From: Clostridioides difficile
GTDB taxonomy: Bacteria > Bacillota > Clostridia > Peptostreptococcales > Peptostreptococcaceae
Reading direction: 5' to 3'
NCBI RefSeq assembly: GCF_001299635.1
Contig: NZ_JRHN01000038.1
Coordinates: 186,001-250,000, forward strand
DNA length: 64,000 nt
Position numbers and translations under genes: made by a program. Position 1 is the stretch's first letter, and the number at the start of each line of letters is the position of its first letter. The notes under the pieces were generated by a model, which saw only the letters and a program-made list of their open reading frames with translations, had not been told where the DNA came from and ran no database searches. Below are positions 50,697 through 62,612 of the stretch, piece by piece.

Positions 50697-50705
50697 ATTT
50701 TCATC

Positions 50706-50790
50706 TTTACTGGTCTCCCTACACTGGCATTATCCAAACAGGTTCAAAGGGTCGAGATAAAATCTCCTCTCAGCACATTAGCTCCCCGAA
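50706..50790 (-). ncRNA. TPP (THI-box) riboswitch
   Basis: The minus strand reads GGGGAGC, then GCTGAGAGGA, then GACCCTTTGAACCTG, then GGATAATGCCAG, then GTAGGGA: the conserved THI-box segments in order. It controls the downstream thiamine-precursor transport operon by transcription attenuation. A TATAAT at 50800-50795 fits a start close to the aptamer. Confidence 0.95.
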
Positions 50791-50794
50791 ATAT

Positions 50795-50800
50795 ATTATA
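50795..50800 (-). promoter_or_regulatory. Probable -10 element upstream of the TPP riboswitch
   Basis: TATAAT on the minus strand about 7 bases before the conserved GGGGAGC; the -35 region is weak. Confidence 0.5.
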
Positions 50801-51254
50801 TCTTTTCTACTTGATTATACTACACTTATCATATTTTAACAAATTTTTTATTCATATTATATATTTTATCTATTTTAAAATATATAATACCAAAATAGTA
50901 TTTTTTAGTATTTTTAAAAAAGTATATTGCCACAATACCTACTCATCATAATTTATTAGAGTTTGATTAAATTTTAAAACTTAGTTATAAAAATATACTA
51001 TTATAATGATTTTTCTTTATTTTATTAACCATTTGACTTTATTTAGCTTTATTCTACTGCCTCAAATCAGTTCAATTTAGGTTAATAATAAAAACCTCTT
51101 ATTCTGATTTGTATATATAAACTATATAATGTAATTATTTTACCTAATTTATTTTTGAAAAATAAATTATTTTTTTTAATTTTTAAATTTTTTAATATGT
51201 ACCTTGAAAAATCAAACGTTTTCCTATATGATTGTAATTGTAGAATAAAACTAA
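50801..51254. other. AT-rich intergenic region between divergent riboswitches
   Basis: About 450 bases without a supported gene. It separates the TPP leader (minus) from the c-di-GMP leader (plus) and must hold promoters for both; a TATAAT occurs at about 51124-51129 on the plus strand. Confidence 0.5.
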
Positions 51255-51337
51255 ATAGGCAAAACTAGAGAAATTTAGTGACGCAAAGCTATAGGGACTA
51301 AGACTTATGAAACGAGTTATGTCAGCCAGTTGCCAAA
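51255..51337 (+). ncRNA. Cyclic di-GMP-I (GEMM) riboswitch, copy 1
   Basis: P1 is closed by GGCAA (51258-51262) and TTGCC (51330-51334). The core has GACGCAAAGC, then AGGGAC, then GTCAGCCAG, the conserved GEMM-I segments. Just after P1 a small hairpin AAAAAGA/TCTTTTT with a T-rich run could be the expression platform. It lies in front of the 58-codon ORF at 51390. Confidence 0.88.
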
Positions 51338-51389
51338 AAGATATTTTCTTTTTGTTTTTATGAAAGTTTTTTAGGGGGATAAATGATAT

Positions 51390-51566
51390 ATGTTTATAGA
51401 TAAAATGGATAGATGTACGCATATACTAACTGCATATATATGCAGTTCATACGATTACTGCAATTTTATAGATACACAATTAAATGACTTTATACTAGAA
51501 TATGGAGAGAACGTGGTAGAATCTTGTTTGCATCAAGTGATGGTATTGGTAAGCAGATATAATTAA
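51390..51566 (+). CDS. 58-residue protein behind a c-di-GMP riboswitch
   Basis: ATG at 51390 with GGGGGA (51374-51379) about 10 bases upstream; stop at 51564-51566. The protein starts MFIDKMDRCTHILTAYICSS and has four cysteines (about residues 9, 18, 24 and 46). There is no signal peptide or membrane helix, and I do not recognise a family. It is the only plus-strand reading frame behind the riboswitch before the converging HxlR gene. It may be a real small protein or the surviving start of a decayed gene. Confidence 0.45.
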   Translation: MFIDKMDRCTHILTAYICSSYDYCNFIDTQLNDFILEYGENVVESCLHQVMVLVSRYN

Positions 51567-51680
51567 AGAAATTTTATTTTCTAGAAAAACCTTTTTAGTT
51601 TTATCTACGTTTTATAATACATTAAAGAACTAATTAAAATAAGCTTCATTATCTATTTTTCATGAAGTAAACAGTTGAGT

Positions 51681-59572: not shown

Positions 59573-59598
59573 CTCCGTCCTAAACTAATAGGACGGAG
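59573..59598 (-). terminator. T-box terminator of the trpP leader
   Basis: CTCCGTCCTA pairs perfectly with TAGGACGGAG around a 6-base loop, followed by TTTTTTATTTTA on the minus strand. It is the alternative to the antiterminator that contains the T-box sequence. Confidence 0.88.
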
Positions 59599-59872
59599 AT
59601 TATCCGCGTTGCCACCTAAATTATATAAAAACTAATACAAAATTTAATTTTTATATATCTCATTATCAGGTACTTACATACCTTATTCGCTATAACGTGC
59701 GACTGACGATAAAGTCTACTCTCAAAACTATGATTTCAATTTACTCCTCTAAGGGCCATTCATTGAATTTTTTCTTGCTAAGATTCCACCATCCTCAGCT
59801 CTCTATAATGAACCTAAATTTAACTACTCTTCCTTTTCATAGGATTTAATTTACTTTATTAAATTTTGTCGT
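59599..59872 (-). ncRNA. T-box leader (tryptophan, UGG specifier)
   Basis: On the minus strand the leader has AGAGAGCTGAGGATGGTGGAA near its start, then a GAA-TGG specifier (TGG at 59758-59756), and then the T-box AGGTGGCAACGCGG at 59617-59604 just before the terminator. Uncharged tRNA-Trp would stabilise the antiterminator and switch the transporter on. A consensus promoter lies directly upstream. Confidence 0.9.
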
Positions 59873-61561: not shown

Positions 61562-62050
61562 TTATGATAAACTTAAACATTCTTCTATATATTGACTATA
61601 TACATATCCAGAATATTTTTTTCCATTTCTATCAATATTAACCCTTGCCCATTTGCCAACACTATAACATACTTCAACTTTAAAACCATCAGGAATTGTA
61701 GTTATAATTCTAGAGTCTAATGTTCTATCATTTCTAAGTTCTAGACTTAAGCCATTCGTTCTTATATTTCCTACATAATTCTTTTTTCTATTTTTTACTA
61801 TACCATTACTATTGCTTTTAGCATTACTTAATTTTTCTAAATATTTATAAAGTAACCAACCTTTGTCATAATTACTTTCAACTTCTGCCCATATTCCATC
61901 GACACATTTTAACTTAACAATTTTACCTTCTGGTATACTTTTCAACTTCATACTATTTATGTCTGGTCTTTCTCTTAAATTTAATTTAATTTTAGTCTTA
62001 AAATTGATGCTAGATTCGCCAAAACTTTTCAACATTAATTCAGATATCAT
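61562..62050 (-). CDS. Protein with two bacterial SH3 (SH3b) domains under a c-di-GMP riboswitch
   Basis: A 162-residue protein. The start is ATG at 62050 with AGGAGGG 5-6 bases upstream. SH3b-1 (about 20-75) reads KLNLRERPDINSMKLKSIPE and later WAEVESNYDKGWLLYKYLEK. SH3b-2 (about 95-155) reads LSLELRNDRTLDSRIITTIP and later GKWARVNIDRNGKKYSGYVY. No signal peptide or catalytic domain is visible, which is odd for SH3b domains that usually bind peptidoglycan. It lies about 85 bases behind the second GEMM-I riboswitch and has its own terminator. Confidence 0.75.
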   Translation of the reverse strand: MISELMLKSFGESSINFKTKIKLNLRERPDINSMKLKSIPEGKIVKLKCVDGIWAEVESNYDKGWLLYKYLEKLSNAKSNSNGIVKNRKKNYVGNIRTNGLSLELRNDRTLDSRIITTIPDGFKVEVCYSVGKWARVNIDRNGKKYSGYVYSQYIEECLSLS

Positions 62051-62134
62051 CTTAAGCCCTCCTCTTGCCAAATATTAAGTTATTAAAAATATATAACTTT
62101 AAAAAATACTTTCAACAAAAAGAATTATTATCTT

Positions 62135-62221
62135 TTTGGCAACTGGCTGACATGACCTTTATTATATAAAGATTTTAGTCCCTATAGCTTTGCGTCATTA
62201 GATTTATCTAATATTGCCTAT
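62135..62221 (-). ncRNA. Cyclic di-GMP-I (GEMM) riboswitch, copy 2
   Basis: P1 on the minus strand is GGCAA (62218-62214) with TTGCC (62142-62138). The core has TGACGCAAAGCTATAGGGAC and ATGTCAGCCAGTTGCC. A small AAAAAGA/TCTTTTT hairpin follows, as in copy 1. It precedes the SH3b gene. Confidence 0.88.
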
Positions 62222-62612
62222 ATCTGAATAATAACATAATTTAAACAATTTAAAAATAATATTACATCAAATTTTATATTAATTAAATATAAATTAAATT
62301 TTTAATTAATAATAACCAAAAAATATCTTTATATTTATTAATTTAATTATTCTTCTTCATAATTCATCTAAAAAATAGTAATTTGTATATGATATCACTA
62401 CTTTTAACAAATCTTTTTCAATAAATATTAATATATAAAAATAATCGATAATTTTTTACATCCTTAATTAATATAAAAAATTAATGATTAATAAAAACCT
62501 AAAAATAATTTGTATTAATTATTCTCTTTTTAAAATTTTTACTACTTTATCTATGCTAAATCCTCTCTACGCACTTTATCATAAGATGTATATATTTTAC
62601 TTTTTAAATGAC
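62222..62612. other. AT-rich intergenic region
   Basis: About 390 bases with no supported gene. It separates the leftward c-di-GMP riboswitch (and must hold its promoter) from the rightward permease promoter. Confidence 0.5.

What the first reader, a model, noticed from the sequence alone, without database searches (positions are those of the whole stretch)
51255..51566. c-di-GMP-I riboswitch controlling an unlisted 58-residue cysteine-containing ORF
The GEMM-I aptamer is complete, and the only plus-strand reading frame behind it is a 58-codon ORF with a GGGGGA ribosome binding site and four cysteines. Riboswitch targets are normally expressed genes, so either this is an overlooked small c-di-GMP-controlled protein, the RNA is itself the product, or the original gene has decayed.
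Basis: partly seen in the sequence, partly recalled or inferred. Interest (0 to 1): 0.65.

Follow-up and report, generated by a model that had tools for sequence, protein, structure and literature searches.

The report
c-di-GMP-switched small protein gene family
The 58-residue reading frame behind this c-di-GMP riboswitch is a real gene, one of many copies of a small protein that we found only in Clostridioides, and a close relative has been reported to hold back spore formation.

Summary
Confirmed. A complete c-di-GMP-I aptamer (51248-51337, 79 bits) precedes an intact 58-codon ORF (51390-51566). The ORF is a gene: intact at this site in 8 of 8 Clostridioides genomes, variable columns at codon positions 1/2/3 being 3/3/26, dN/dS 0.04. 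Leader, hairpin and ORF form a dispersed cassette; in those genomes 44 of 78 c-di-GMP-I aptamers lead a family ORF (34 intact, 10 broken). The family was found in 8 of 71 Peptostreptococcaceae genomes, all Clostridioides.

In strain 630 the paralogues CD1990.3, CD2309 and CD3368.2 are also 177 bp and fall with c-di-GMP (published). The family includes CD16671, whose overexpression lowers sporulation (published). New here: CD16671-type copies carry a decayed c-di-GMP aptamer, nest inside the riboswitch clade, and have paired RgaR-like boxes on the antisense strand (the published SpoZ arrangement); another class has such boxes in its own promoter. One small-protein family thus appears wired to c-di-GMP, RgaS-RgaR and an antisense RNA.

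Most likely the window gene is an OFF-switched relative of a sporulation-damping protein. That activity is inferred, and its sign conflicts with c-di-GMP's net inhibition of sporulation. Spo0E homology was tested and not found.

The parts
51204..51232 (+). sigma-70-type promoter-like site TTGAAA-17-TATGAT
   Evidence: 10 of 12 consensus matches; 7 such sites found against 5.9 expected, so weak alone; position fits a transcript starting just before the aptamer
51240..51612 (+). dispersed cassette: leader, ORF and 3' end, repeated elsewhere in the genome (ends approximate)
   Evidence: 75-95% identity to 31 non-orthologous intact copies in every 20-nt bin from 51240 to 51599, 72% at 51600, lower outside; 12-17 DNA matches per genome, some of the aptamer alone
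51248..51337 (+). c-di-GMP-I (GEMM-I) aptamer
   Evidence: RF01051, 79.2 bits
51334..51359 (+). A-U rich terminator-like hairpin (8 pairs) and U5 tract
   Evidence: -6.7 kcal/mol, z -3.5; all 8 pairs kept in 38 of 42 aptamer-bearing copies; not called by the GC-demanding consensus scan
51373..51379 (+). ribosome binding site AGGGGGA
   Evidence: same region conserved in the class A and B copies aligned
51390..51566 (+). 58-codon gene, class A member of the CD16671/CD19903 small-protein family
   Evidence: PHROG 9888 E 1.5e-40
51581..51598 (+). conserved 3' inverted repeat CTAGAAAAACCTTTTTAG, possible weak terminator
   Evidence: 91% identity in bin 51580; fold only -2.7 kcal/mol, z 0.6

Best explanation
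A c-di-GMP OFF riboswitch controls a real 58-aa gene. At low c-di-GMP RNA polymerase reads through the short A-U hairpin and the small helical protein is made. At high c-di-GMP the bound aptamer favours termination at 51334-51359 and the protein is not made. The protein belongs to the Clostridioides family that includes CD16671 and most likely acts as CD16671 is reported to act, damping sporulation-specific gene expression when it accumulates. Shown here: real gene, family, cassette, conserved aptamer and hairpin, family wiring. Shown elsewhere for paralogues: c-di-GMP repression, and a sporulation effect of CD16671. Inferred: that this copy switches the same way and has the same activity.
For: Aptamer and ORF. 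Coding: dN/dS 0.044 over 8 orthologues and 0.113 over 39 intact copies; codon-position pattern 3/3/26. Hairpin kept in 38 of 42 aptamer-bearing copies. Strain 630: CD1990.3, CD2309 and CD3368.2 are 177 bp and fall 4.7- to 8.9-fold in RNA-seq at high c-di-GMP; the Cdi-1-6 riboswitch region falls 6.4-fold. Cdi1_9 gives a 140-nt terminated RNA and a longer transcript repressed at high c-di-GMP. CD16671 link: in G001 the class B ORF and the ORF at the Cdi-1-8-like site are 79.9% nt and 81.0% aa identical; the paper gives 80% and 81% for CD16671 and CD19903. CD16671 overexpression lowers spores 1.8-fold and sigE/sigG 1.6-fold.
Against: Deleting CD16671 alone did not change sporulation, and the spoZ-CD16671 mutant could not be complemented. 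[quoted passage not shown] I found no experiment on the activity of any class A protein. By qRT-PCR the three 630 paralogues fell only to 0.59, 0.31 and 0.34, and three of the seven class I genes tested did not reach significance (the marks that say which were lost). For Cdi-1-6 McKee et al. detected no downstream coding sequence and very low reads, and suggested that such RNAs may be non-functional. The whole leader folds no better than shuffles (z 0.17), the consensus scan found no terminator, and I showed no anti-terminator. Fold searches gave no relative of known function.
Confidence: 0.6

Rival explanations
1. Class A proteins counteract CD16671, for example by forming mixed complexes or competing for its target. 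Turning them off with c-di-GMP would then free the inhibitor, one route by which c-di-GMP represses sporulation.
For: The sign fits the net inhibitory effect of c-di-GMP. The class B protein is 79-81% identical to the two class A proteins compared, so shared partners are plausible. The c-di-GMP route to sporulation is described as unidentified.
Against: No data on complexes or on any class A protein; 17 columns are invariant across the classes in 15 rows, which suggests the same rather than opposite activity.
Confidence: 0.17
2. The protein is real and c-di-GMP-repressed but acts outside sporulation (motility, envelope or another stress response); the CD16671 effect is an overexpression artefact.
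For: Small CD16671 effect and no deletion phenotype; no class A member tested; CRISPRi of CD15111, which I take to be class C, did not alter sporulation.
Against: CD16671 overexpression also lowers sigE and sigG, and its transcript rises about 20-fold in rgaS and rgaR mutants, which sporulate poorly. The 8-12 family matches per genome, broken ones included, could hide single-gene phenotypes.
Confidence: 0.2
3. The RNA is the product, or the gene has decayed; the ORF is a chance frame.
For: Some aptamer-led copies are indeed decayed (10 of 44); low reads and no detected coding sequence at Cdi-1-6 in 630.
Against: Window copy: dN/dS 0.044, no indel or stop in 8 of 8 orthologues, changes mostly at third positions.
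Confidence: 0.03

Closest known systems
CD1990.3, CD2309, CD3368.2, CD1424 and CD1981.2, small genes behind c-di-GMP-I riboswitches of C. difficile 630
   Same: c-di-GMP-I aptamer before a small ORF, 177 bp for the three whose coordinates I saw; four regions reported 88-93% identical. In G001, a closed genome of the genus, the counterpart of the window site has the order, strands and spacing that 630 shows for Cdi-1-6, Cdi-1-1 and Cdi-1-8.
   Different: No difference found; the window is another species-level genome. I did not have the 630 sequence itself, so the match of site to CD1981.2 is by position only.
CD16671, with the antisense RNA SpoZ
   Same: 58 aa; the window protein is 79.3% identical to the class B protein that I identify with CD16671.
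   Different: CD16671-type loci carry a decayed aptamer and RgaR-like boxes on the antisense strand; the window has a complete aptamer and no such pair: the best antisense pair in the 700 nt past its stop scores 11 of 18, against 15-17 in class B.
PHROG 9888
   Same: Full-length match, E 1.5e-40.
   Different: An unannotated cluster of viral proteins. The copies I followed are chromosomal or on a plasmid; the phage collection gave no match to the protein, and 20 of 23 IMG/VR matches lie within 2.5 kb of a contig end.
Spo0E-like phosphatases (PF09388)
   Same: Small protein that inhibits sporulation; a T-Q-x-x-D in 15 of 15 aligned family members recalls the Spo0E signature, though two further members have S for D.
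   Different: No Pfam match at E up to 1; profile comparison probability 1.3%.

Membership tests
c-di-GMP-I riboswitch (RF01051) | full-length covariance-model match above the gathering score | tested here: met
   79.2 bits against 35, model positions 1-87 of 87
c-di-GMP-I riboswitch (RF01051) | conserved core motifs GGCAAA and GACGCAAA | tested here: met
   both present; both in 38 of 41 unclipped aptamer-bearing copies and in 0 of 7 class B copies
c-di-GMP-I riboswitch (RF01051) | binds c-di-GMP and changes transcription | not testable with these tools
   published for 630 paralogues; needs in-line probing or in vitro transcription
CD16671/CD19903 small-protein family | 58-60 aa, no other domain, shared invariant residues | tested here: met
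   15-row alignment, 17 invariant columns; 79.3% identity to the class B protein
CD16671/CD19903 small-protein family | accumulation lowers sporulation | not testable with these tools
   published for CD16671 only
SpoZ-type antisense control | paired RgaR-like boxes 21 nt apart on the strand antisense to the ORF | tested here: not met
   best antisense pair in 700 nt past the window stop 11 of 18; 15-17 of 18 in 7 of 7 extracted class B loci, of which 5 passed the stricter cut of 16
Spo0E-like phosphatase (PF09388) | Pfam profile match | tested here: not met
   not listed at E up to 1; hhalign probability 1.3%
Spo0E-like phosphatase (PF09388) | Spo0E fold | tested here: inconclusive
   AF2 model pLDDT 88; no Foldseek match at E 0.001, best Z 7.0 to a helical piece of YcaO

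The most novel reading that the evidence does not exclude
c-di-GMP and the RgaS-RgaR system converge on one amplified small-protein family. Class A copies are gated by c-di-GMP OFF riboswitches, class C copies are driven by RgaR, and class B (CD16671) is a former riboswitch gene whose aptamer decayed and whose control passed to an RgaR-driven antisense RNA (SpoZ). The family would be a direct route by which c-di-GMP sets the sporulation threshold, which earlier work described as unidentified.
Probability: 0.4. Interest if true: 0.78.

Novelty: new member of a known kind. Interest (0 to 1): 0.52.

Why it matters
The route from c-di-GMP to sporulation in C. difficile was reported as unidentified, with the remark that none of the riboswitches appear to affect sporulation-related genes, though under conditions that do not favour sporulation (PMC8653836, passages). 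Two years later CD16671 was reported as a sporulation-damping protein with CD19903 as a relative, in a paper whose main text holds the word riboswitch 0 times. CD19903 is a riboswitch target. Putting these together makes the question testable: several c-di-GMP riboswitches control close relatives of a sporulation regulator. The decayed aptamer in the CD16671-type leader is also an example of one RNA control layer replaced by another.

Tried and rejected
Spo0E homology: the T-Q-x-x-D of the family looked like the Spo0E S-x-x-x-D signature (recalled). No Pfam match and profile comparison probability 1.3%: rejected. Two further family members have S in place of that D (L131, L173), so the motif is not universal either.

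Fold relatives: Foldseek against PDB and BFVD and VIA-align gave nothing significant (best a helical piece of YcaO, Z 7.0, below the level the tool calls meaningful for helical bundles). PDB sequence searches gave only chance matches.

Four-cysteine metal or disulfide site: only C9 is invariant in 15 rows: not supported.

Phages: tblastn of the window protein and of the class C protein against the phage collection found nothing; the phage hits are the leader only.

Mobile element: transposase, terminal repeats and target duplications were not tested formally; the repeat ends about where the transcription unit ends, so a duplicated gene unit is the simpler reading.

Pair counting in the decayed aptamers was not informative: class B still scores 16-20 of 21 pairs because the region is A-T rich and G-U is allowed. 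The decay claim rests on lost core motifs and absent Rfam matches.

Neighbouring genes: eleven stretches (ten of G001, one of G007) were looked at by eye and recall and showed no common partner gene; six further fetched stretches (L166-L171) were not looked at as gene neighbourhoods.

Rows dropped or clipped: one search used 39 of 65 copies (intact 58-aa only). One search left out 9 loci (class C, and fragments) and put 6 copies with decayed leader and ORF in a group of their own; L071 and L030 were clipped by my slicing and are not counted for the core motifs, L071 not for the hairpin. One search left out L081 (frame misaligned).

Full report
WHAT IS THERE. A complete c-di-GMP-I aptamer lies at 51248-51337 on the + strand (RF01051, 79.2 bits, model 1-87 of 87). 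It is followed by a short A-U hairpin with a U5 tract (51334-51359; -6.7 kcal/mol, z -3.5), AGGGGGA at 51373-51379, and an ATG ORF of 58 codons at 51390-51566. A promoter-like TTGAAA-17-TATGAT lies at 51204-51232, but the region gives about as many such matches as its shuffles (7 against 5.9). The consensus terminator scan, which demands GC pairs, found nothing, and the leader as a whole folds no better than shuffles. The hairpin is therefore supported mainly by conservation.

IT IS A GENE. Searching the 521-bp region in 8 Clostridioides genomes (the window's own included; 8 of 8 matched) showed that this is a dispersed repeat, with 12 to 17 matches per genome, some of them the aptamer alone. 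I extracted 65 copies. The copy at the window's own site is intact in 8 of 8 genomes. Over those eight, variable columns fall 3, 3 and 26 on codon positions 1, 2 and 3, and summed pairwise dN/dS is 0.044; over the 39 intact 58-aa copies it is 0.113. Identity to 31 non-orthologous intact copies is 75-95% in every 20-nt bin from 51240 to 51599; it falls to 57-66% over the promoter region and to about 40% past 51640. The repeated unit is thus roughly the transcription unit.

FAMILY AND DISTRIBUTION. A profile of the family found 8 of 71 Peptostreptococcaceae genomes, all of the window's genus, with 8 to 12 matches each, broken ones included. A scan of genome contigs gave 19 loci, from three strains titled C. 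difficile. NCBIfam gave no match and Pfam only sub-threshold ones (best E 0.096); PHROG 9888, of unknown function, matches full length. RF01051 has 78 matches in the 8 genomes. Of these, 44 lie within 260 nt upstream of a family ORF, 34 intact and 10 broken, and 34 do not. There are 28 further intact members without an Rfam aptamer, and 10 broken ones.

FOUR WIRINGS. Class A (the window) has the aptamer. Class B (one intact copy in each of the 8 genomes; 7 of these 8 extracted with leader) has an intact ORF, but in 7 of 7 GGCAAA has become GGTAAA and GACGCAAA is lost. Both motifs are intact in 38 of 41 unclipped aptamer-bearing copies; the 3 exceptions lack an intact ORF. Rfam at E up to 0.5 finds no RF01051 match in those 7 loci, while a positive control in the same call scores 75 bits. 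The hairpin keeps 4-6 of 8 pairs in class B, against 8 of 8 in 38 of 42 aptamer-bearing copies. On the opposite strand, 372-379 nt past the class B stop, a pair of VirR/RgaR-type boxes 21 nt apart scores 15-17 of 18 in 7 of 7 extracted loci and in the eighth genome's locus L125, the next best pair in each scoring 12-13; at the stricter cut of 16 used first, 5 of the 7 passed. In the window the best such pair past the stop scores 11, and no pair in the whole window exceeds 14. This is the arrangement published for spoZ, whose critical G residues are at -51 and -72, 21 nt apart.

Class C (60 aa, 11 intact) has paired boxes in its own promoter. A strict search for CCAGTTNTNCA pairs over the 8 genomes gave 7 matches and none for the reversed control; all 7 lie 110-142 nt upstream of a class C type ORF with a GTG start. 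The other four class C members do not match strictly: in G001 and in the HC132 locus L129 each differs by a base in one box, one (L057) has a single box, and one was not looked at. In G001 the codon at the start position reads GTC, so that copy may start elsewhere. A plasmid copy (pESS17301a) has the paired boxes too. Class D (one per genome) has a weaker pair in the two copies looked at; class E (own genome only) has none. The box consensus is recalled, not taken from a call.

HISTORY. In a tree of 50 ORFs, A and B together form one side of a branch (100/99). B is one group (100/100) and falls inside A (95/78), and holding A together without B is rejected (AU p 0.008); a quick tree had shown the same before the test, so that p is not from a blind test. 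The riboswitch was therefore most likely present in the ancestor of A and B and was lost in B. The bootstrap had not fully settled, and long branches separate A+B from C-E.

WHAT IS PUBLISHED. Soutourina et al. [quoted passage not shown] McKee et al. 2018 (PMC6200980, section 8 and passages) give CD1990.3, CD2309 and CD3368.2 as 177 bp and 4.7- to 8.9-fold down at high c-di-GMP by RNA-seq, and to 0.59, 0.31 and 0.34 by qRT-PCR, where not all genes reached significance. For Cdi-1-6 they report no downstream coding sequence and very low reads, with the riboswitch region 6.4-fold down. [quoted passage not shown] By order, strand and spacing (630: 10.2 and 11.6 kb; G001: 10.5 and 11.6 kb) the window site corresponds to Cdi-1-6. 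The RgaS-RgaR paper of 2023 (PMC10602386, sections 9 and 10 and passages) reports that CD16671, 58 aa, lowers sporulation 1.8-fold and sigE and sigG 1.6-fold when overexpressed, that its deletion has no effect, that SpoZ is antisense to it, and that CD19903 is 80% nt and 81% aa identical to it. In G001 my class B ORF and the ORF at the Cdi-1-8-like site are 79.9% nt and 81.0% aa identical, which identifies class B with CD16671. That class C is CD15111 is inferred from its boxes and size, not checked by sequence. The mBio review PMC11210211 was seen in passages only, as was PMC8428550.

WHAT SEEMS NEW. In the library searched I found no paper that joins the riboswitch family to the CD16671 family, and none on the decayed aptamer; most papers of subscription journals are not in that library and supplements were not read.

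MECHANISM. OFF switch by termination: inferred for this copy, shown for paralogues. Protein: an all-helical model (pLDDT 88, pTM 0.71) without significant structural relatives. Activity: the best guess is the sporulation damping reported for CD16671. [quoted passage not shown] Either this is an opposing branch, or class A proteins antagonise CD16671, or they do something else. These are separable by the tests listed.

Noticed in passing
window 62135-62228 (-) and 61562-62071 (-): A second c-di-GMP-I aptamer (69.1 bits) leads an ORF that by position matches the SH3-domain protein CD1990; in 630 its riboswitch Cdi-1-1 is the one class I case reported to go up with c-di-GMP.
   Followed up: partly
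window 50699-50798 (-): TPP riboswitch just above gathering score (57.3 against 54.3), upstream of an operon that looks like a thiamine-precursor ABC transporter (gene names from recall).
   Followed up: no
window 59586-59849 (-): T-box leader, 107.7 bits.
   Followed up: no
phages phiCD27, CD1801, phiC2, phiCD418 (hits H1-H6; L209:1501-1688): Phages carry the cassette's leader (80-95% identical over 82-180 nt) without the small ORF, beside the site-specific recombinase gene in phiCD27; by the 2024 review the 630 prophage copies lead antitoxin RNAs.
   Followed up: partly
L131:7001-7183 (plasmid pESS17301a, NZ_CP067354.1): A 136-kb Clostridioides plasmid carries a class C type member with paired RgaR-type boxes upstream.
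   Followed up: partly
G000 contig C37:1901-7458, G005 contig C386:104381-109865, G007:2370939-2377563: Some copies come in local clusters of two or three, some with decayed aptamer and ORF. In L161 and L165 copies sit near BlaI-type regulator genes, an IS605-type transposase fragment or a phage lysis module (gene names from recall).
   Followed up: no
Viral-contig loci L089-L111: 23 IMG/VR contigs carry family members, 20 of 23 within 2.5 kb of a contig end, as if prophages often sit beside these cassettes.
   Followed up: partly
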